Made by a program: the position numbers and the translations under genes. This document shows, in pieces, positions 7,947 through 33,662 of a stretch of 64,000 bases of DNA. Location of the stretch: contig NZ_CP069396.1 in NCBI RefSeq assembly GCF_016887565.1, positions 1,391,001 to 1,455,000 on the forward strand, read 5' to 3'. Under the pieces are notes generated by a model that made no database searches, was not told the DNA's origin, and saw only the letters and a list, made by a program, of their open reading frames with translations. Source of the DNA: Archangium violaceum (lineage in GTDB: Bacteria; Myxococcota; Myxococcia; Myxococcales; Myxococcaceae). The number at the start of each line of letters is the position of its first letter. The stretch's first letter is position 1.

Positions 7947-10016
7947 GTGAGCAATATGGCCCCACAGCGAACCGGCGATGAGCAGAATGACGTCGCCGCC
8001 CACGCGCTCGGCGAGCGCGGTCACACCCAAGCCCTCCACAGTACCGGGGGCCGTCCCTCGGGCGGCTCGTCGGGCCCTGGTGCTCCCCACCGCGGGCGGG
8101 TGTTCGTGGGGCTCTCCCTCGCGCTCGGTCTGTCCCTGGCGATCGCCCACGGCCTGCTGGCCGGGGCGCTGGACAAGATGTCCACCGAGCGCGCGGATCG
8201 CCAGTCCCTCGTGTCCCTGCGTGCGCTGGAGGACCTGGTCCAGCGCGCGGGGGGCTCGGGGGATGCCGTGCGCGCCGTGGTGTCCACGTGGAAGGAGCAG
8301 CTTCCGCCGGGCAGCGCGGTGCGAGTGATTGCCTTCTCGGGCATCCAGCTCGAGGCCTCCACCTTCCCCGAGGACCAGGGGGAGCGCGCGGCGCCGCGCC
8401 GGCTGTCGCGCGAGGAGAAGCCCCTCTACGACCGCGGGCAGCGGCTGCGCGCCGCGGTGGAGACCAACCGGGAGGAAGGCTCCGCGCGCAAGCTGGAGGT
8501 GGAGACGGAGGCGCTGCCGGATGGCCGGCGCCTGCTGAGCGCGCCGGTGGAGGTGGACGGCTCGGTGGTGGGCATGGTGGAGCTGGCCACGGCTCCGCTG
8601 GCGGCCCCGTTGAAGCCGGGCATGCTGGCGACGCTGGCCTTCTTCCTGGTGCCGCTGGCGGTGTGTGGTGCCGCGGCCTTCGTCGTGCGCCGCCAGGGCC
8701 TGCTCGTCGCCATGTCGGTGGTGTTGCTCGCGGCGGGCCTGGGTGGCTACGTGTCCTATTCGCTGGGCACGTTGGGCTCCGAGGTGCATGCGACGCAGAC
8801 GCTCGTGGCCTCGCAGCTACAAGCGATGGCGCAGCGGGCCCAGGCGGTGATGGCCGAGCGGCAGCTCGCGGCCGAGCCGGCGCTGCAGCCCGGCAACTGG
8901 GACGCGGATCAGTTCCGCCGTCCGCTGGGGCTGGTGACGCCGGCGGGTGAGGTGAACGAGGCGGTGGTGTCCGCGCGCGTGGCCGAGCTGCGCTCGGGCG
9001 CGGGCCGCGCGCTCGGTGGGCTGGGCGCGCTGGCCCTGGCCGTGCTGCTCTTCATCGGCATGGGCGGTCTGGCCCGCACGGTGGAGACGGTGGTGGAGTA
9101 CCGGACGGCCTACCTCTACATCGCCCCGGCGATGGTGGGCATGCTGGTCCTCGTCTTCTTCCCGTTCTTCTACGGCATCACCCTGTCCTTCACCGACTCC
9201 AACCTCTACAACACGGGGCAGGCGCTGTCGGACATCTGGGTGGGCCTGCGCAACTACGTGGAGATCCTCGGCGACTTCAACATCGCCCGGAGGGCGCAGG
9301 ACGGGTCGCTCGTCTTCAACTACCTCAACTTCTATTACACGCTCTTCTTCACGGTGGTGTGGACGGTCACCAACGTGACCATCGGCGTGACGGTGGGCCT
9401 GGCGCTGGCGCTCATGCTCAACGTGCAGGGGCTGGCGCTGCGGCCGGTGTACCGCGTGCTGCTCATCCTGCCGTGGGCCATGCCCAACTACATCACCGCG
9501 CTCATCTGGAAGGGCATGTTCCACCAGCAGTTCGGCGTGGTGAACCACGTCATCCGGATGTTCGGTGGACAGGGGCTCGCCTGGTACGACACGCCGACGA
9601 CGTCGTTCCTCACGGCGCTCGCCACCAACGGCTGGCTGAGCTTCCCCTTCATGATGGTGGTGTCGCTGGGCGCGCTGACGTCCATCCCCAACGAGCTCTA
9701 CGAGGCCGCGCGCGTGGATGGGGCCTCTCGCTGGCAGCAGTTCAAGTCGATTACACTGCCCTCGCTCAAGCCCGCGCTGGTCCCGGCCGTCATCCTGTCG
9801 GTCGTCTGGACCTTCAACATGTTCAACATCATCTTCCTGGTGACCGAGGGCGAGCCGAGCAACTCGACGGAAATCCTCGTGACCCAGGCGTACAAGTTCG
9901 CCTTCCAGCGCTACCGCTACGGGTACGCGGCGGCGTACTCGACGGTCATCTTCGGCATCCTGCTGCTCTACAGCGTGGTGCAGAACCGCATGTCGCGCGC
10001 CACGGAGGCCGCCTGA
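7947..10016 (+). CDS. malF: MalF permease with long N-terminal sensor-like extension
   Basis: Inner-membrane permease of 689 residues. The C-terminal 305 residues (from YRTAYLYIAPAM near 387) form a normal MalF/UgpA core with the EAA loop EAARVDGASRW that docks MalK. The first about 380 residues are extra: a helix at 52-72, an extracytoplasmic alpha/beta segment at 73-224 resembling single Cache/PAS-like sensor domains, two helices near 225-245 and 250-272, a second outside segment to about 352, and a helix at 353-372. E. coli MalF (514 residues) instead carries its large periplasmic insertion inside the core. GTG 7947 is chosen because GAGGAGC precedes it. The sensor role is inference. Confidence 0.9.
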   Translation: MSNMAPQRTGDEQNDVAAHALGERGHTQALHSTGGRPSGGSSGPGAPHRGRVFVGLSLALGLSLAIAHGLLAGALDKMSTERADRQSLVSLRALEDLVQRAGGSGDAVRAVVSTWKEQLPPGSAVRVIAFSGIQLEASTFPEDQGERAAPRRLSREEKPLYDRGQRLRAAVETNREEGSARKLEVETEALPDGRRLLSAPVEVDGSVVGMVELATAPLAAPLKPGMLATLAFFLVPLAVCGAAAFVVRRQGLLVAMSVVLLAAGLGGYVSYSLGTLGSEVHATQTLVASQLQAMAQRAQAVMAERQLAAEPALQPGNWDADQFRRPLGLVTPAGEVNEAVVSARVAELRSGAGRALGGLGALALAVLLFIGMGGLARTVETVVEYRTAYLYIAPAMVGMLVLVFFPFFYGITLSFTDSNLYNTGQALSDIWVGLRNYVEILGDFNIARRAQDGSLVFNYLNFYYTLFFTVVWTVTNVTIGVTVGLALALMLNVQGLALRPVYRVLLILPWAMPNYITALIWKGMFHQQFGVVNHVIRMFGGQGLAWYDTPTTSFLTALATNGWLSFPFMMVVSLGALTSIPNELYEAARVDGASRWQQFKSITLPSLKPALVPAVILSVVWTFNMFNIIFLVTEGEPSNSTEILVTQAYKFAFQRYRYGYAAAYSTVIFGILLLYSVVQNRMSRATEAA

Positions 10017-23945: not shown

Positions 23946-25070
23946 ATGAAGCAGGCCAATACAGTGATCCCGTTGCCCATACGGAATCAGGTCGCCCTGG
24001 AGAGACCCAGGAACCAGGTGGATCTGGAGCGGCTGGTGTTGCGCGCACGCAGCGGCATCGAGCGGCGCTGGACATCCTGGCTGGCCAGGGGCGTGAAGAC
24101 ACTCTCGTATTACGGAGGCTTCTCCGCCTCCAGGCCGCTGGGAGAGGGCGAGGCGGTCATCCTCTTCTACCACAAGGTGCAGCGGCGGCCGGTGGGAGTC
24201 TGGGGCGAGCCGGTGCTCGATGTCCGGGAGTTCGAGCGGCATGCCCTCTTCCTGGCGCGCGAGTACCAACCGGTGCTCCTGTCCGAGCTCGTCGCGGGGC
24301 TCGCGGGACGGGCGAGATTGCCCCGCCGGGCCCTGGCGCTGACCTTCGATGATGGCTACCGCAACAACCTGTACCTCGTCGCGCCCATCCTCGCGCGCCA
24401 TGGCATCCCGGCCACCGTCTTCGTCACCACGGGGCTGGTGGGGACCGATCGCTGGATGTGGGCGTATGAGCTGGAGGAGCTCTTCTCCCGCAACCCGCCC
24501 GACCAGGTGTGCCGCGCGAGTGGAGACCCGGCCATCCTGCGGCTCGGCTCGCTCGGCTTGAGACCGCGAGTCCTGATGATGGCGTGCGTCGAGTACCTCA
24601 AGGAGCTGCCGCACGCGAGCATGCTCGGCATCGTGGAGCGGATGCGCGCATCGCTGCCGGTCCCGGTGAACGATGAGAACCGTTTCCTCTCCTGGGAGGA
24701 GGTGCGGGAGCTGTCGCGCCAGGGGTTCGAGATCGGAGCTCATACGGAGAACCACCCCATCCTCACGCGGCTCCCGCTCGCGGAGGTGGAGCGGGAGCTT
24801 CGGGCCTGCCGCGACACCCTCGAGGAGAAGCTGGGCGTGCGTCCGACGCTCTTCTCCTATCCCAACGGGGCCACGGACCCCGGGGTGACGGAGCTCGTGG
24901 GCCGCTACTTCGAGGCGGCGGTCACCACGCAGTCGGGAATCTGCTCGCGAGCGAGTGGGCTCCTCGAGCTTCCGCGCATCGGGGCGCCCGTTCCCGTGTC
25001 GGAGCTGGCCTTCGAGCTGACCTGGAACTATCTGCGGACAGAAGTGGCGCGGCCCGTGCCGGCACCGTGA
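23946..25070 (+). CDS. Polysaccharide deacetylase (NodB domain)
   Basis: Carbohydrate esterase family 4 protein of 374 residues. The NodB motifs are complete: TFDDGY with Asp135 and Asp136, the metal-binding His266 and His270 in AHTENHP, and FSYPNG near 303-308. The N-terminal 60 residues are basic and lack a clear signal peptide, so it probably acts in the cytoplasm or at the inner membrane face on a lipid- or nucleotide-linked sugar, removing N-acetyl groups. It is the first gene of a four-gene operon with acyltransferases and an aminotransferase; the next gene starts 24 bases on. Substrate unknown. Confidence 0.88.
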   Translation: MKQANTVIPLPIRNQVALERPRNQVDLERLVLRARSGIERRWTSWLARGVKTLSYYGGFSASRPLGEGEAVILFYHKVQRRPVGVWGEPVLDVREFERHALFLAREYQPVLLSELVAGLAGRARLPRRALALTFDDGYRNNLYLVAPILARHGIPATVFVTTGLVGTDRWMWAYELEELFSRNPPDQVCRASGDPAILRLGSLGLRPRVLMMACVEYLKELPHASMLGIVERMRASLPVPVNDENRFLSWEEVRELSRQGFEIGAHTENHPILTRLPLAEVERELRACRDTLEEKLGVRPTLFSYPNGATDPGVTELVGRYFEAAVTTQSGICSRASGLLELPRIGAPVPVSELAFELTWNYLRTEVARPVPAP

Positions 25071-25094
25071 GCAGCCGAGGGGGGAGGGGGGAAG

Positions 25095-26240
25095 ATGGAA
25101 CAGGCGGTCCGGTGGGAAGAGGTGCCCGGGCTCGACATCACCGTCGAGCAGCGGGTGGGGCTGGAGACCCTGTCCGGGTTCTCGTCCGAGTGGGACGCGC
25201 TCGCGCGAGCCACTCCTGGGGCGGGACCCTTCGCGCTCAGTGGTTGGACGCGGTTGTGGATGGAGAGCTTCGCCCCGGGTTCCACGCTGCGGGTGCTGCG
25301 TGCGAGCAGGGGCGGCCGGGCGATCGCCTTCGCTCCGCTCCTGGAGCGGCGCGGGCGTCTCGCGGGCGTGCCCGTGCGGCTGTGGCAGTCTCCGTCCAAC
25401 GAGCACTCGCAGCGGGTGGCGTGGGCGCTCGACGCGGCGCGCCCGGAGGAAGCCGTGCGCGGCGTCTGGGCGCACCTCCGGGAGGAGCCCTGGGAGGTGC
25501 TCCTCCTCAAGGACATCGAGGCGGGTGGCGTGGTGGACGCGGCGCTCGGCGCGGCCGCCGGAGAGGACGGCTTCCTGGTGGCGCGCTGGCCCTCGCTCGA
25601 GTCGCCGTGGCTTCCGGTGCTCTCCCGCGGCGCGCTCGAGGAGACGCTCGATGCCAGGTTCCGCGCCAACCTCCGGCGGCGGCGCAAGAAGCTCGCGCGG
25701 CAGGGCCCGCTCGTGCTGCGCCGTGTGGACGATGAGGCTTCCGTCTCCCGTGCGCTCGAGGAGGGGCTCGCGCTCGAAGGGAGCGGGTGGAAGGGGCGCG
25801 GTGGGACGGCCATCGTCTGCCGTCCGGAGACGCTCGCCTTCTACACGCGGCTGGCCCGGCTCGCCGCGTCGGGGGGATGGCTCTCCCTCTATACGCTCTC
25901 GGCGGGCGACCATCCCGTGGCCTTCCACTTCGGGCTGGAGTACGGGGGCCGCTACTACCTGCTCAAGCCCGGCTACGACGAGCGCTTCTCCGAGTGCTCT
26001 CCGGGCCAGCTCCTCGTCGAGGACGTGCTGGAGGAGCTCTCCCACCGGGGCACGGCGGAGTTCGATTTCCTGGGCCCGCGGATGACCTGGAAGCTCGACT
26101 GGACCGAGCGGCTCCGTTCTCACGTCTGGTTGTTCATCGTCCGGCCCTCGCTCAAGGGTCGGCTCCTGCACGCGGCTCGCTTCCGCCATGGACCGGCGCT
26201 GAAGCGATGGATTCGGGAGGTGGGTGGATGGAAACATTGA
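25095..26240 (+). CDS. CelD/BcsL-type (FemAB-like) GNAT acyltransferase
   Basis: Protein of 381 residues with the double-GNAT layout of the Acetyltransf_6 group (COG5653; loosely FemAB-related). The second half carries the typical blocks: RFRANLRRRRKKLARQG, then LEGSGWKGRGGTA, a FYTRLARLAA segment, YYLLKPGYDERFSECSPGQLL and FDFLGPRMTWKLDW. Family members are tied to exopolysaccharide synthesis and transfer acyl or aminoacyl groups to amino sugars; the donor here is unknown. ATG 25095 follows GGGAGGGGGGAAG. Its stop overlaps the start of the aminotransferase gene, so translation is coupled. Confidence 0.85.
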   Translation: MEQAVRWEEVPGLDITVEQRVGLETLSGFSSEWDALARATPGAGPFALSGWTRLWMESFAPGSTLRVLRASRGGRAIAFAPLLERRGRLAGVPVRLWQSPSNEHSQRVAWALDAARPEEAVRGVWAHLREEPWEVLLLKDIEAGGVVDAALGAAAGEDGFLVARWPSLESPWLPVLSRGALEETLDARFRANLRRRRKKLARQGPLVLRRVDDEASVSRALEEGLALEGSGWKGRGGTAIVCRPETLAFYTRLARLAASGGWLSLYTLSAGDHPVAFHFGLEYGGRYYLLKPGYDERFSECSPGQLLVEDVLEELSHRGTAEFDFLGPRMTWKLDWTERLRSHVWLFIVRPSLKGRLLHAARFRHGPALKRWIREVGGWKH

Positions 26241-27364
26241 TGGCCATTCCGTCGATGCCGGACCTCGGCCCGGCGCAACTGCTGCCGCGCCGGGGCGGCA
26301 AGGTGCTCTTTCCCTTCAACAGGCACGGGCTCGAGCTGACCTACCTCGGCCGCAACGCCGTCTGGCGGGCCGCCAGGATGCTGGGGCTCGAAGGGTGCGA
26401 GGTCATCGTCCCGGCGTACCACCATGGTGTGGAAGTCTCGGCCCTGCTCCACGCGGGAGCGCGGCTCCGGTTCGCGCGCGTGGATGCGTCGGGACGGTTG
26501 GATCCGGACGATGTCCGAGCGCGCGTGGGCCCTCGCACGCGCGCCATCTATGTCATTCATTACGCGGGGTTCCCCCAGCCGCTCGATGCGCTGCTGGAGA
26601 TCGCCCGCGAGGCTGGCGCCTTCCTGATCGAGGACTGCGCGCTGTCGCTCTTCTCCCGCGAGGGCGTGTATCCGCTGGGAAGCAGGGGCGATGCCGCCAT
26701 CTTCTGTTTCTACAAAACGCTCCCCGTGCCTCATGGCGGAGGTCTGCTCCTGCGAGAGGCTCACGCGGAGCGGCTCGCGGACCTGGCACCTCCTCCGCTC
26801 CTGCCAACGCTCTCGCACATGGCTGGCTCGATGCTGGTGGGTGCCGAGCGCCGGTTCCAGGGTCCGGGCAGGTGGCTGCGCTCGATGGCGAAGACCTTCA
26901 CCGGGCGCGTCCGGGCCCGGGCGCGGCTCGAGGACGTTCCGGTGGGAACCCAGGCCTTCGAGCCGGGAGCGGTTCATCTCGGGATGAGCCCCGTCGTCGC
27001 GAGGGCGCTGGGGTCCGTGGACGCGGAGCAGGTGGTGCGCCGCCGCCGCGCCAACTGGCTCTTTCTCCACGAGCGGATCGGCAGGCCCGAGCGAGCGACG
27101 TGGTCCTCGCTGCCGCCAGGGGTGTGCCCGCTCTTCTATGCGCTGGAGGTGGAGGACAAGGCTCGCGCCCTGCGCCTGCTGTGGTCACGGGGCATCCAGG
27201 CGGTCGATTTCTGGAGGTCCGGTCATCCCGCAGCCTCGTGCGAGCGCTTCCCCGAGGTGGAGGCACTGCGCCAGCGGGTGGTGGAGCTCCCCTGTCATCA
27301 AGCGCTCGGCTCCGAGGAGCTCGAGCATGTCGCGAAGGTGGCGAGGGAGGCGCTGGAGGCATGA
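26228..27364 (+). CDS. DegT/DnrJ/EryC1-type PLP aminotransferase
   Basis: PLP-dependent fold-type I enzyme of 378 residues, DegT-like. Visible features are the N-terminal GRNAVWRAARML and VPAYHHGVEVSALLHAGA cofactor-binding blocks, YVIHYAGFPQPL, the acidic pair Glu135-Asp136 in LIEDCAL that holds the pyridine nitrogen, and Lys163 in FCFYKTLPVPHGG as the Schiff-base lysine. It should make an amino sugar or use a related sugar nucleotide; the GEGG pattern of classic sugar aminotransferases is replaced by PVPHGGG, so the substrate may differ. ATG 26228 has GGGAGG six bases upstream and overlaps the previous gene by 13 bases; ATG 26240 is an alternative. Confidence 0.86.
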   Translation: METLMAIPSMPDLGPAQLLPRRGGKVLFPFNRHGLELTYLGRNAVWRAARMLGLEGCEVIVPAYHHGVEVSALLHAGARLRFARVDASGRLDPDDVRARVGPRTRAIYVIHYAGFPQPLDALLEIAREAGAFLIEDCALSLFSREGVYPLGSRGDAAIFCFYKTLPVPHGGGLLLREAHAERLADLAPPPLLPTLSHMAGSMLVGAERRFQGPGRWLRSMAKTFTGRVRARARLEDVPVGTQAFEPGAVHLGMSPVVARALGSVDAEQVVRRRRANWLFLHERIGRPERATWSSLPPGVCPLFYALEVEDKARALRLLWSRGIQAVDFWRSGHPAASCERFPEVEALRQRVVELPCHQALGSEELEHVAKVAREALEA

Positions 27365-28530
27365 ACAGCCGCTGGACAGTGGGCATCGTGAGGGAGACGC
27401 GGGGCTTCCTGGCGCTCCGGGACGAGTGGCGGCGCTTGTACGGGTCCGTCCGGGCGCGCGTCTTCAACACCTGGGAATGGCTCTTCGGCTGGCACCTCCA
27501 CTTCGGCAGGGAGCGGCGGCTCTTCATCCTCACGGCACGGGACGAGACGGGCGGGCTCGTCGGAGTGCTGCCGCTCTCCATCGAGGAGCAGCGGTGGGCA
27601 GGTGGCCGCCTCCGGTGGCTCCGGTTCCTGGGGGATGAGGCCGTGGGCAGCGACTACCTGGATGCCATCCTCCGGCCCGGGGATGAGCCGGCCATCGCCG
27701 GGGCGCTGGTGGATGCGCTCGCGAGCACCTGGCGCGAGTGGGACATCCTGGAGCTGGCCGACATGGAGGAGACGTCTCCCCTCGTGGCGCTCCTGAGAGC
27801 GCGCTGCGAGGCTCGAGGGTGGCACCTGGAGAGCACCGGGCGGAACCGCTGTCCGTACGAGGCTTTCGAGGTGGGCGAGAGCTTCGACACCCTGCTGGCC
27901 CGGGTGCCCCGGGCCGACAACTACCTGCGCCGTCGCAAGTGGCTCGAACGCCAGAAGGGCTTCGCCATCACGAAGGCGGAGGACCCCGAGGCGCTCGCCC
28001 TCGCGCTGCCCGAGTTCTTCCGGTTGCATGCCCTGCGTTGGGGAGCGCGCAGCTCGCTCGATGCGCCAGACGTCCAGGAGTTCCACCGTGCGGTGGTGCC
28101 GCTCCTGGCGGCGGAGGGAAAGGTCCGCGTCTACCTGCTGTCCGTGGAGGGCAGGGCGGTGGCATCGGTCTACGCCCTGCTGCACGGGCGCACCTTCAGT
28201 TATTACAACGCGGGATATGACCCCGAGTGGAAGGCGCGGAGCGTGGGGCTCGTCCTCGTGGGCGAGACGTTCCGCGATGCGCTGGCCGAGGGCTTTTCCG
28301 AGTACGACTTCCTGCGCGGTGTCGAGGCGTACAAGTCGGACTGGACGCGGGGGCTCCGGACGACGGTGCGGCTGCGCATCACCCGGCCGGCGAGCCTCGG
28401 CGATTGGGTCGTGCGTGCCCAGGCGCTCGAACAGACGGCCCGAGGCGTGCTCCGGGATGCGCTCCCCGGGGAGGTGCTCACACGCCTCCGGCGGTTGCGG
28501 TCGCGGGGTCAGGAGGTACCGGTGAGGTGA
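27361..28530 (+). CDS. Second CelD/BcsL-type (FemAB-like) acyltransferase
   Basis: Protein of 389 residues of the same Acetyltransf_6 group as the gene at 25095 but clearly diverged. Recognisable parts are FNTWEWLFGWHLHFG near the N-terminus, NYLRRRKWLERQKG, FFRLHALRWGARSSLD, YAL-HGRTFSYYNAGYDPEW and YDFLRGVEAYKSDWTRG. The ATG overlaps the aminotransferase stop (ATGA). Two different acyltransferases around an aminotransferase suggest two distinct acylations, or one enzyme acting on a newly made amino group and one on a deacetylated one. This ends the operon; the convergent CULT gene stops 9 bases away. Confidence 0.85.
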   Translation: MNSRWTVGIVRETRGFLALRDEWRRLYGSVRARVFNTWEWLFGWHLHFGRERRLFILTARDETGGLVGVLPLSIEEQRWAGGRLRWLRFLGDEAVGSDYLDAILRPGDEPAIAGALVDALASTWREWDILELADMEETSPLVALLRARCEARGWHLESTGRNRCPYEAFEVGESFDTLLARVPRADNYLRRRKWLERQKGFAITKAEDPEALALALPEFFRLHALRWGARSSLDAPDVQEFHRAVVPLLAAEGKVRVYLLSVEGRAVASVYALLHGRTFSYYNAGYDPEWKARSVGLVLVGETFRDALAEGFSEYDFLRGVEAYKSDWTRGLRTTVRLRITRPASLGDWVVRAQALEQTARGVLRDALPGEVLTRLRRLRSRGQEVPVR

Positions 28531-28539
28531 TGGAGGCGC

Positions 28540-28962
28540 TCAGCTCGGGGCGGTGAGCCGGTCCAGGACGAGGGCGAGGAAGTCGCTCTCGCCGTGGAAG
28601 GCCCAGCCCAGGTGCGTCTTGCAGGCGGCGCACAGGGCGTACTCCCAGACGAAGCCCGGGAACCAGCTCGCCTCCGCGGTGAGCGGGCCGATGACGAGGC
28701 AGCCCTCGGCCCGCGCGAAGCAGCCGAAGTGGAAGACGAACCCGGATGGGTTCACGCGCGTGTGGCCGTGCCGGCCGTTGACGGTGGTGCGGTCTCGCTC
28801 GTGGGTGATGACGTGGCCGCACCGCGCGCAGCACAGGGGCGTCTCCGGAGCTCGGGATTCGGTGTCTTCCTTTGACTGGCTGGTGGGCGTGGTCTCGGTG
28901 GGCGCCGGGGGCTTGCCCTTGAGTCGTCGTGCTTCAGGGGTTGGCCAGGGGGACGGATTCAT
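28540..28962 (-). CDS. CULT-domain (cereblon-like ligand-binding) protein
   Basis: Zinc-binding protein of 140 residues. After a polar N-terminal tail of about 40 residues comes a single CULT domain, the fold that binds thalidomide in human cereblon and is known from some bacteria. Two CxxC zinc pairs are present (Cys45-Cys48 in CARC, Cys111-Cys114 in CAAC). All three aromatic-cage tryptophans are in place: Trp100 in SWFPG, Trp106 in FVWEYAL and Trp120 in HLGW. GFVFHFGCF and FLALVLDRL complete the family pattern. No Lon-like domain is attached. It should bind a uracil- or imide-like small molecule; the natural role of bacterial forms is unknown. ATG 28962 is used; an upstream GTG at 28992 lies inside a repeat. 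Confidence 0.88.
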   Translation of the reverse strand: MNPSPWPTPEARRLKGKPPAPTETTPTSQSKEDTESRAPETPLCCARCGHVITHERDRTTVNGRHGHTRVNPSGFVFHFGCFARAEGCLVIGPLTAEASWFPGFVWEYALCAACKTHLGWAFHGESDFLALVLDRLTAPS

Positions 28963-28984: not shown

Positions 28985-29019
28985 ACCCTCACCCTGTCCC
29001 TCTCCCAGAGGGAGAGGGG
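28985..29019 (-). repeat. REP-like palindromic repeat, copy B
   Basis: Inverted copy of the element at 21358: ACCCTCACCCTG then arms CCCTCTCCC and GGGAGAGGG around AGA. It lies between the divergent CULT and ABC-transporter genes. Confidence 0.85.
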
Positions 29020-29110: not shown

Positions 29111-30037
29111 TTGACGCGGAACGTTCACGTGCCCCTGGAGGTCTCCGAGGTCACCAAGGTGTACCCCAGGGGCATCCAGGCGCTCGATCAGGTCAGCTTC
29201 AGGATCTCCCCGGGCGAGCGGGCCTGCCTGCTCGGCCCCAACGGCGCGGGGAAGACGACCCTCATCCGCCTGCTCACCGGTGCGCTCCGGCCCTCGTCCG
29301 GACGGGTGAGCCTCTTCGGGCTTGGGATCGACGACCCCGACTTCCTCCTGGCCAAGCGGCGCGTGGGCATCGTCCCCCAGTCACCGGGCATGTATCGGGA
29401 CCTCACGGTGGACGACTACCTCCAACTGGTGAGAGACCTCTACGGCAGCGGGAACATCGCCGAGGTGGTGGAGGCCTTCGGTCTGGCGTCCTTCCGCTCG
29501 CGGCGGATGGCCGAGCTGTCCGGGGGCATGCAGCGCCGGTTGTCCATGGCCGCCGCGCTCGTCTCCTCGCCGGAGGTGCTGCTGTTGGACGAGCCCACGG
29601 TGGGGTTGGATCCCGTCGCCACGCGCGAGGTGCACACCTTCCTGCGCGAGGTGATGCCCGGCCGCACGGTGCTGCTGTGCACGCACAACCTGGCCGAGGC
29701 CGAGGCCCTCTGTGAGAGCGCGGTCATCCTCCGCCAGGGCCGGGTGTTGCTGCACGAGCGCATCGCCACCCTGCGCCAGCGCATCCAGCCAGTGCTGGTG
29801 CTGCGCGCCGCCCAGGGTCCCGAACGGCTGCTCCAGGCCCTCTCCGCGCGGGGCATCTCGCCCACGCGCGAGGAGGACGCGGTGCGCGTGCACGTGGCGG
29901 ACGCGGTGGCCCGGGCGCCCGAGCTGCTGCGCGGGCTGCTCGCCGAGGGCATGGATGTCTACGAGTGCCGGGTGGTGACGCCGAGCCTCGAGGACCTCTT
30001 CCTGGAGGTCGTGGGAGCCAAAGATGCTCGCGCGTGA
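29111..30037 (+). CDS. ABC-2 exporter ATPase
   Basis: ABC ATPase of 308 residues of the NodI/DrrA/CcmA group. Walker A is GPNGAGKTT, the Q-loop VPQSPGMYRDLTV, the signature LSGGMQRRLSMAAAL, Walker B VLLLDEPTVGLDP and the switch His in CTHNLAEAE, followed by a C-terminal extension of about 90 residues usual for this group. TTG 29111 is chosen because GGGAGG lies eight bases ahead; ATG 29057 is in frame but has no site and would add 18 atypical residues. It overlaps the permease gene by 14 bases, so the two form one exporter. Substrate unknown. Confidence 0.88.
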   Translation: MTRNVHVPLEVSEVTKVYPRGIQALDQVSFRISPGERACLLGPNGAGKTTLIRLLTGALRPSSGRVSLFGLGIDDPDFLLAKRRVGIVPQSPGMYRDLTVDDYLQLVRDLYGSGNIAEVVEAFGLASFRSRRMAELSGGMQRRLSMAAALVSSPEVLLLDEPTVGLDPVATREVHTFLREVMPGRTVLLCTHNLAEAEALCESAVILRQGRVLLHERIATLRQRIQPVLVLRAAQGPERLLQALSARGISPTREEDAVRVHVADAVARAPELLRGLLAEGMDVYECRVVTPSLEDLFLEVVGAKDARA

Positions 30038-30776
30038 GGTGCGGATCCTCTTCGGCAAGGAGTGGCGCCAGTTGCTGCGCAGTCGGGGCGCCATGGTGAC
30101 GGCGCTGCTGCTGCCGGTGCTGCTGCTGGTCATCATCCCGGGAGTGCAGATGCTCGGGCTGAAGAGCGGCGCGATGAAGCCGGTGAACCTCCCGCCCGGC
30201 GTGGAGCTGCCCCCAGGTCTCCGCGAGCTCGCGGAGGATCCCGTGGCCATGATGCGGGCCATGCTGGTTCCGTTCATCGCGCTCGGCGGGCTCATCGTGC
30301 CCTCGGTGACGGCCAGCTACATCCTCATCACCGAGCGCGAGTCGCGCACGCTCGAGCTGCTGGTGGCGCTCCCGGTACGCGTGGGGCAGATATTGCTCGC
30401 CAAGCTGCTGGCCCTGCTCGCCCTGGCCTCGGCCGTCACCCTGGTCCTCTTCTCCGTCGACGCGGCGCTCATCCTCTGGCTGCGCGTGGGCTCGCCCGGC
30501 TTCGTGCTGGCGCTCCTGCTGGTGCTGCTCACGTCACTGACCTTCTCCACCACCAGCGCGTTGCTCGTCAGCCTGTTGGCACGCGACTTCCGCACGGCCA
30601 ACAACATCAACGGGCTGCTCATCGGCCCCATCATCCTCGTCTGCTTCCTCGCCATGGTGGCGGTGCCGGGCCCCATCCTGACCGCGCTGCTGCTCGCGGC
30701 GCTGTTCACCGTGGGCGCGGGGGTGGCCACCTTCGTGGCACTGAGGGTCATCACCTTCGAGCGGCTGCTGCGCTGA
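30024..30776 (+). CDS. ABC-2 type permease
   Basis: Membrane subunit of 250 residues with about six helices. It begins MLAREVRILFGKEWRQLLRSRGAMV, the usual amphipathic start of ABC-2 permeases, then a hydrophobic helix, an outside loop (NLPPGVELPPG) and SYILITERESRTLELLVALPVR, a hallmark segment of this family. Gene start overlaps the ATPase gene. The pair would export a lipid, drug, sugar or similar compound; nothing in the sequence decides which. Confidence 0.88.
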   Translation: MLAREVRILFGKEWRQLLRSRGAMVTALLLPVLLLVIIPGVQMLGLKSGAMKPVNLPPGVELPPGLRELAEDPVAMMRAMLVPFIALGGLIVPSVTASYILITERESRTLELLVALPVRVGQILLAKLLALLALASAVTLVLFSVDAALILWLRVGSPGFVLALLLVLLTSLTFSTTSALLVSLLARDFRTANNINGLLIGPIILVCFLAMVAVPGPILTALLLAALFTVGAGVATFVALRVITFERLLR

Positions 30777-30815: not shown

Positions 30816-31910
30816 ATGACCGGCTCTCCCATGCTCCTCCCGACCTGCATCACCGACCTGCACTTCGAGCCGTTGGATCTCGCCCTCACCGAGCCCTTCG
30901 CCATCGCCACGGGCGCGCCGGACATGGCGAACAACGTGCTCGTGCGCCTGAAGCTGGCGGACGGGACGGTGGGCCTGGGTGAGTCGGCGCCCCTCACGGC
31001 GGTGTCCGGCGAGACGCAGGCCAGCACGCTCGCGGCCATCACCTCCGTGCGCGAGGCGCTGCTCGGACGGGACGCGCGTGGCTGGCGCCCCATTGGCGCA
31101 TGGCTCGCCGAGGCCCTCCCGGGGGCTCCCTCCGCGCGCTGTGGCATCGAGCTGGCGCTGCTGGACGCGCTGGGCCGGCACTACCGGATGCCGCTGTTCG
31201 CCTTCTTCGGCGGGGCGGGCACCGGGCTGGACATCGACATGACGGTGACGGCTGGTGACGAGGCGCACGCGGCGTCCTCGGCCCGGGCCATCGTCGCCAG
31301 GGGCATCCGCACCCTCAAGGTGAAGGTGGGCGCGCTGTCCGCCGAGGAGGACGTGCGGCGCATGGTGGTCATCCGGCGCGAGGCGCCCAACGCGCGGCTG
31401 TTCGCGGACGCCAACGGGGGCTACACCGTGGCGCAGGCCCGGACGTTCCTCGAGGGGCTGGAGGCCGCGGGCATCCCCCTGGCGCTCTTCGAGCAGCCCG
31501 TGCCTCGCGAGGACTGGGAGGGCATGGCCGAGCTGACGCGCTCGTCGCGGGTGCCCATCTGCGCGGACGAGTCGGCCCGCACGGCGAAGGACGTGCTGCG
31601 CCTGGCGCGCGAGGGTGGCGCGCACGGCGTCAACCTCAAGCTGATGAAGAGTGGCGTGGTGGAGTCCCTGGCCATGTGGAACCTGGCGCGCGCCTCCGGC
31701 ATGGAGCTGATGATGGGGGGCATGGTGGAGAGCACCCTGGCCATGAGCAGCGCGGCGCACTTCGCCGCCGGGTTGGGCGGCTTCGACTACGCGGACCTGG
31801 ACACGCACCTCTTCATCCGAGAGCACTCCTTTCAAGGGGGTCTGCGGATGCGGGACGGGCACGTGGACATCGGACATGTCCAGGCCGGCCACGGTGTCGA
31901 CCTGGGCTGA
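30816..31910 (+). CDS. Dipeptide epimerase-like enolase superfamily enzyme
   Basis: Mandelate racemase/muconate-lactonising-type enzyme of 364 residues. The capping domain includes GLGESAPL. The barrel has the KxK pair Lys168-Lys170 (LKVKVG), metal ligands Asp198 (ADANGGY), Glu226 (FEQPVP) and Asp251 (ADES), and a catalytic Lys in NLKLMKSG (275-278). This set, with ES at the third ligand and MMGGMVES near the end, is that of L-Ala-D/L-Glu and related dipeptide epimerases, though specificity cannot be read directly. Forty bases separate it from the permease gene, so it may share that transcript. It could recycle murein peptides or act on a small peptide. Confidence 0.87.
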   Translation: MTGSPMLLPTCITDLHFEPLDLALTEPFAIATGAPDMANNVLVRLKLADGTVGLGESAPLTAVSGETQASTLAAITSVREALLGRDARGWRPIGAWLAEALPGAPSARCGIELALLDALGRHYRMPLFAFFGGAGTGLDIDMTVTAGDEAHAASSARAIVARGIRTLKVKVGALSAEEDVRRMVVIRREAPNARLFADANGGYTVAQARTFLEGLEAAGIPLALFEQPVPREDWEGMAELTRSSRVPICADESARTAKDVLRLAREGGAHGVNLKLMKSGVVESLAMWNLARASGMELMMGGMVESTLAMSSAAHFAAGLGGFDYADLDTHLFIREHSFQGGLRMRDGHVDIGHVQAGHGVDLG

Positions 31911-31985
31911 GCCGTTGGGCGCCGTGGGTCTCCTGTGCCAAAGTGACACGCACCGGCCGTGAAGGCCGGCAGGGGGAGACACCGC

Positions 31986-33662
<1,677 letters not shown>

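What the first reader, a model, noticed from the sequence alone, without database searches (positions are those of the whole stretch)
28540..28962. Free-standing bacterial cereblon-like (CULT) protein
Seen: two CxxC zinc pairs and all three cage tryptophans (SWFPG, FVW, HLGW) in the same order and spacing as human cereblon, in a 140-residue protein with no Lon-like domain. Known: CULT binds thalidomide-type imides and uridine-like ligands, and bacterial forms are described but their natural ligand and role are unclear. Inference: an intact ligand pocket next to a sigma-54-controlled surface-glycan operon may sense a small metabolite or damage product such as cyclic imides at protein C-termini.
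Basis: partly seen in the sequence, partly recalled or inferred. Interest (0 to 1): 0.78.

Follow-up and report, generated by a model that had tools for sequence, protein, structure and literature searches.

The report
Stand-alone bacterial cereblon-type (CULT) protein
[quoted passage not shown] the family is already known, but its relatives in some distant myxobacteria sit beside the ClpA-ClpS protease genes, which suggests, without proving, that it marks chemically damaged proteins for destruction.

Summary
The minus-strand gene 28540-28962 encodes a 140-residue, single-domain CULT protein in an Archangium-type genome. It matches bacterial cereblon MsCI4 (E 8e-21, 41% identity) and human cereblon (35% identity). 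The AlphaFold domain (pLDDT 95-99) superposes on thalidomide-bound MsCI4 at 1.0 Å. Zinc cysteines and the three cage tryptophans are invariant in the 44-sequence alignment, and the domain is under purifying selection (dN/dS 0.19).

The family is already described, including in a myxobacterium (Haliangium), so this is a new member of a known kind. The proposed link to a sigma-54 glycan operon is not supported: those genes flank CULT only in this genome and its closest relative.

Two leads bear on the unknown function. First, in four genomes of two other Myxococcota classes CULT lies just beyond the 3' end of clpA-clpS, convergent, while other genes there have turned over. Second, genera with CULT carry the isoaspartyl methyltransferase PIMT more often (22/26 versus 32/64; p=0.004, weakening to 0.057 after control for genome size); human PCMT1 makes C-terminal cyclic imides for cereblon.

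Best reading: a cytosolic reader of cyclic-imide (or uracil-like) groups, possibly a protease adaptor. The pocket is well supported; the biological role is inference.

The parts
28540..28962 (-). CULT gene, 140 aa, ATG start at 28962, stop at 28540-28542
   Evidence: orthologues; dN/dS 0.19 in the domain
28543..28839 (-). CULT beta-tent domain, residues 42-140
   Evidence: AlphaFold pLDDT 95-99; Foldseek to MsCI4 4v32, rmsd 1.0 over 100 columns
28840..28962 (-). N-terminal hydrophilic tail, residues 1-41, predicted disordered; contains RRLKG, conserved as [RW]LK[GED] in the family only
   Evidence: pLDDT 44-62; tail dN/dS 0.39; motif analysis
28819..28830 (-). first zinc CxxC, C45-x-x-C48
   Evidence: invariant in 44 sequences
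28621..28632 (-). second zinc CxxC, C111-x-x-C114
   Evidence: invariant in 44 sequences
28663..28665 (-). cage tryptophan W100 (human W380)
   Evidence: invariant; aligned
28645..28647 (-). cage tryptophan W106 (human W386)
   Evidence: invariant; aligned
28603..28605 (-). cage tryptophan W120 (human W400)
   Evidence: invariant; aligned
29111..30776 (+). divergent ABC transporter ATPase (29111-30037) and ABC-2 permease (30024-30776): the only neighbours kept next to CULT across Archangium and one sister genus
   Evidence: Pfam; synteny
30831..33662 (+). enolase-superfamily (MR_MLE) enzyme and FAD monooxygenase downstream of the ABC genes, conserved in the same Archangium block
   Evidence: Pfam; synteny
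23946..28530 (+). polysaccharide deacetylase, GNAT, DegT aminotransferase, GNAT genes convergent with CULT; shared there only with the nearest relative G005, so not a conserved partner
   Evidence: Pfam; synteny

Best explanation
A free-standing, cytosolic CULT protein of the MsCI4 type. A Zn-pinned beta-tent domain holds a three-tryptophan cage that recognises a five- or six-membered cyclic imide or uracil-like edge. SHOWN here: gene reality, family membership, invariant cage and zinc residues, predicted fold, purifying selection, a tail predicted disordered, no fixed operon. INFERRED: the physiological ligand is most likely a cyclic-imide group left on damaged or PIMT-processed protein C-termini, as for human cereblon, and binding marks these proteins for removal or repair. 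INFERRED, weaker: the disordered N-tail and the clpA-clpS linkage in some relatives point to delivery to an AAA+ protease such as ClpAP, much as ClpS delivers N-degrons.
For: Sequence and fold match to MsCI4 and human cereblon. C45, C48, W100, F101, W106, C111, C114, G119 and W120 invariant, and N71, P72, H117 nearly so, in a 44-sequence alignment across the phylum. dN/dS 0.19. MsCI4 binds thalidomide and uridine but not thymidine or cytidine (PMC4449219). Human cereblon reads C-terminal cyclic imides, which PCMT1 can generate (PMC11974815). Genera with CULT carry PIMT in 22/26 cases against 32/64 without (Fisher p=0.004); control families are not significant (MsrB 23/26 vs 50/64, p=0.38; ClpS p=0.17 by genome). 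clpA-clpS lies beside CULT in G059, G061, G063 and G070, with ClpA confirmed over the equivalog cut-off in three.
Against: No ligand was tested. The PIMT association falls to p=0.057 in a size-stratified permutation and is not corrected for phylogeny. In Archangium itself CULT is about 0.9 Mb from clpS (1.42 versus 2.32 Mb), and in most genera it has no conserved neighbour. Four CULT-bearing genera (g12, g71, g85, g87) lack a strong PIMT. CULT occurs in under a quarter of the genomes searched, so it is dispensable. Uridine-type metabolites remain an equally good fit to the pocket.
Confidence: 0.4

Rival explanations
1. Small-metabolite sensor: the cage binds uridine, uracil, dihydrouracil or hydantoin-like metabolites, and ligand-induced folding of the hairpin passes a signal to an unknown partner.
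For: MsCI4 binds deoxyuridine in the thalidomide mode and folds on binding (PMC4449219). In one lineage CULT neighbours an RsmE-like gene, the 16S rRNA m3U methyltransferase (clusters c31-c33/c59; named by eye).
Against: No nucleoside-metabolism or regulator gene recurs next to CULT across genera. No DNA-binding or enzymatic output domain is attached. The RsmE-like neighbour is confined to one genus.
Confidence: 0.3
2. Detoxification or immunity to imide natural products: CULT sequesters glutarimide, hydantoin or diketopiperazine-like compounds made or met by myxobacteria, with the divergent ABC-2 exporter as partner in Archangium.
For: An ABC ATPase with a DrrA-type C-terminus and an ABC-2 permease are kept divergent to CULT in all Archangium genomes and one sister genus.
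Against: The ABC neighbour is absent in every other CULT-bearing genus, and CULT is too widespread for one compound.
Confidence: 0.12
3. Glycan-linked sensor: CULT works with the adjacent sigma-54 controlled surface-glycan operon.
For: Physical adjacency in the window; polysaccharide deacetylase, GNAT and aminotransferase genes confirmed.
Against: The genes are on the opposite strand and shared only with G005. The sigma-54 site is not better than chance.
Confidence: 0.04
4. Protein-repair helper rather than protease adaptor: CULT holds cyclic imide ends for hydrolysis or PIMT repair.
For: The PIMT co-occurrence fits repair as well as degradation.
Against: No catalytic residues recognised and no fixed pairing with pcm in the neighbourhoods.
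Confidence: 0.1

Closest known systems
MsCI4 / MGR_0879, bacterial CULT protein of Magnetospirillum gryphiswaldense (PDB 4v2y, 4v32)
   Same: Single-domain bacterial CULT, short N-tail, same zinc and cage residues; 41% identity and 1.0 A over 100 columns
   Different: Longer N-tail (41 vs about 21 residues); residue before the SW motif is Ala (MsCI4 Phe); F104 replaces the conserved Tyr
Haliangium ochraceum CULT (WP_012831591) and other bacterial CULT proteins in PMC4287342
   Same: Same described family, primarily delta-proteobacteria, a myxobacterium already included
   Different: Different genus; not aligned here because the sequence was not held
Human cereblon CULT domain (thalidomide-binding domain)
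   Same: Cage W380/W386/W400 and zinc CxxC pairs map to W100/W106/W120 and C45/C48, C111/C114; 35% identity
   Different: No Lon domain, no DDB1-binding region, no ubiquitin system; H378 is Ala98, Y384 is Phe104
ClpS, N-degron adaptor of ClpAP
   Same: Works-like analogy only: small reader domain, flexible N-terminal extension, gene next to clpA in some CULT genomes
   Different: Unrelated fold and ligand; no direct evidence that CULT contacts ClpA
Yippee / Mis18 / MsrB (other beta-tent proteins)
   Same: Same fold class; weak Pfam and NCBIfam matches
   Different: Matches far below cut-off; the three-Trp cage is a CULT feature (PMC4287342)

Membership tests
CULT domain family (bacterial group, MsCI4-like) | Significant sequence similarity to cereblon CULT | tested here: met
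   MsCI4 E 7.9e-21, human cereblon about 1e-11
CULT domain family (bacterial group, MsCI4-like) | Two CxxC zinc motifs | tested here: met
   C45/C48 and C111/C114, invariant in 44 sequences; zinc itself not assayed
CULT domain family (bacterial group, MsCI4-like) | Three cage tryptophans in conserved spacing | tested here: met
   W100, W106, W120 aligned to human and MsCI4, invariant
CULT domain family (bacterial group, MsCI4-like) | Beta-tent fold with inserted hairpin | tested here: met
   model pLDDT 95-99; top Foldseek hits all cereblon
CULT domain family (bacterial group, MsCI4-like) | Binds thalidomide / uridine | not testable with these tools
   needs purified protein
Cereblon (full protein, CRL4 substrate receptor) | Lon-like domain and DDB1-binding region N-terminal to CULT | tested here: not met
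   only a 41-residue tail predicted disordered
Clp adaptor protein (works like ClpS) | Genetic linkage with clpA | tested here: inconclusive
   present in 4 genomes of 2 other classes, absent in Archangium and most genera
Clp adaptor protein (works like ClpS) | Physical interaction with the AAA+ unfoldase and substrate delivery | not testable with these tools
   needs pull-down or degradation assay
Sigma-54 glycan operon member | Conserved co-location with the glycan genes | tested here: not met
   shared only with G005

The most novel reading that the evidence does not exclude
Bacterial CULT is a C-recognin: an adaptor that hands proteins ending in a cyclic imide to ClpAP, in parallel with ClpS for N-degrons. 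Cereblon would then have inherited, from a bacterial Clp-adaptor setting, a degron reader later coupled to ubiquitin ligases, just as the ClpS domain was in UBR1-type ligases.
Probability: 0.15. Interest if true: 0.88.

Novelty: new member of a known kind. Interest (0 to 1): 0.48.

Why it matters
Cereblon is the most widely used ligase for targeted protein degradation, yet the ancestral job of its ligand-binding domain and the role of the bacterial versions are unknown. The survey here shows that most bacterial CULT genes have no fixed partner. It also gives two concrete testable leads, adjacency to clpA-clpS in two myxobacterial classes and co-occurrence with PIMT. Either would tie the bacterial protein to the same cyclic-imide damage chemistry that human cereblon reads.

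Tried and rejected
Glycan-operon partner: rejected, not conserved beyond the closest relative. Sigma-54 promoter: not above chance. Universal N-tail docking motif: the LK motif is significant only with same-family sequences; outside that family it is not above shuffles (36.1 vs mean 36.8). ClpS co-occurrence: uninformative, ClpS is near-universal (43/45 vs 132/150). The AAA protein 6 kb from CULT in genera g14/g15 first clustered with ClpA but scores far below the ClpA cut-off and was discarded. MsrB was run as control for the PIMT association. Other phyla could not be surveyed: the one genome-contig scan, with the single window protein, reached only myxobacteria.

Full report
Observation. The ORF is on the minus strand, ATG at 28962, stop at 28540, 140 residues. 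phmmer against PDB chains gives MsCI4 (4v32, E 7.9e-21) and vertebrate cereblon (about 1e-11) as the only kinds of hit. Pfam and NCBIfam have no model above cut-off; the best are Yippee-Mis18 and MsrB-type beta-tent families. AlphaFold with a 44-sequence alignment gives pLDDT 95-99 for residues 41-140 and 44-62 for the tail. Foldseek ranks MsCI4 structures first (4v32: rmsd 1.0 over 100 columns, TM 0.89 by target) and then human cereblon. Nine columns are invariant across 44 Myxococcota sequences, including all four cysteines and all three cage tryptophans. N71, P72 and H117 are nearly invariant. The human H378 position is Ala98 and Y384 is Phe104; as I recall the structures, the imide is held mainly by backbone contacts at this place, so this need not harm binding.

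Reality of the gene. Among Archangium genomes the domain has dN/dS 0.19 and the tail 0.39. All 6 genomes of the genus carry it, as do 13 of 48 good-quality relatives and 45 of 195 Myxococcota (26 of 90 genera). Presence is therefore scattered: an accessory, slowly evolving gene. No copy was found in phage or plasmid records or IMG/VR.

Neighbourhood. I called ORFs around 44 CULT loci with a codon-usage score and clustered them. In Archangium and one sister genus the divergent ABC ATPase / ABC-2 permease is kept, followed in Archangium by an enolase-superfamily enzyme and an FAD monooxygenase (Pfam). Genus-specific neighbours exist elsewhere (FHA/GNAT/PilB-type genes in g23; MFS/epimerase/KBL/RsmE-like genes in g38; named by eye) but none recurs between genera, with one exception.

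The exception. In G059, G061 and G063 (one class) and G070 (another class) CULT lies 13 bp to 3.3 kb beyond the 3' end of clpA, convergent with clpA-clpS. ClpA exceeds the NCBIfam equivalog cut-off in three genomes; in G070 the gene is split over two contigs whose fragments (528 + 230 aa) add up to one ClpA, with clpS on the other contig. As a control I compared all clpA-clpS neighbourhoods held for those classes: apart from clpA, clpS, generic kinase and sigma-54 regulator paralogues, no gene is shared by three or more, whereas CULT is beside clpA in four of the five CULT-bearing genomes (the G061 CULT ORF was missed by the caller but is at L087:4120-4518). ClpA there is 65-74% identical between genomes. 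This retention is suggestive, but it may be inherited gene order; CULT is far from clpS in the window's genome.

Co-occurrence. Human cereblon reads C-terminal cyclic imides arising from damage or from PCMT1 acting on C-terminal Asn (PMC11974815). I therefore tested PIMT (TIGR00080): a strong match occurs in 22 of 26 CULT-bearing genera and 32 of 64 others (p=0.004; genome level 40/45 vs 96/150, p=0.001; size-stratified permutation p=0.057; within the family 11/12 vs 8/14, p=0.08). MsrB as a control gives p=0.38, ClpS p=0.17. The genus labels were read by hand from the call outputs and are not phylogeny-corrected, so I treat this as a lead.

Tail. Nearly every CULT protein seen has a hydrophilic N-tail of about 20-45 residues. 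Within the window's family a [RW]LK[GED] motif is kept about 30 residues before the first cysteine; across all genera a motif search beats 60 shuffles (72.2 vs maximum 66.4), but without the family it does not. The tail is thus a possible docking arm, not a demonstrated one. ClpS uses its N-terminal extension to engage ClpA (PMC8138137).

Comparison with the known. Bacterial CULT proteins were defined in 2015, mainly from delta-proteobacteria and including Haliangium (PMC4287342). Their ligand pocket and uridine binding are known from MsCI4 (PMC4449219), and the physiological ligand is stated there as unknown. I found no paper in the held library that links bacterial CULT to Clp proteases or PIMT. 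The protein is thus a new member of a known family; the functional leads go beyond what I could find described.

Verdict. Membership about 0.98, functional imide/uracil pocket about 0.85, C-terminal cyclic-imide reader about 0.4, Clp adaptor about 0.15.

Noticed in passing
28998-29018: Palindromic CCCTCTCCCAGAGGGAGAGGG in the gap between CULT and the divergent ABC gene; resembles a dispersed REP-like repeat, also visible upstream of CULT in G005.
   Followed up: no
L093:4595-5577 (G074): A NADAR-like ORF (182 aa, by eye) overlaps the start of a divergent CULT gene by 4 bases, an operon-like arrangement seen once.
   Followed up: no
L028:14414-16999 (G018), also L068 and L069: An ORF joining an AAA+ ClpA/ClpB-like unfoldase lacking the N-domain to a release-factor-2-like C-terminal part (prfB E 4e-21 over 623-800).
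   Followed up: partly
L036 (G057), CULT near 8901-9236: CULT copy in G057 was flagged with an in-frame TAG at its upstream end in one search, so the start or integrity is uncertain.
   Followed up: no
L091, L092, L093 (G188, G075, G074): A divergent CULT subgroup (20-25% identity to the window protein) keeps zinc and Trp residues but has lost the HxH-type segment and carries an insertion before the last strand; possibly a different ligand.
   Followed up: no
G069 C39 and C143, G018 C6 and C17, f7 genomes: Several Myxococcota carry two ClpS paralogues; a few (G060, G062, family f3) have none detected.
   Followed up: no
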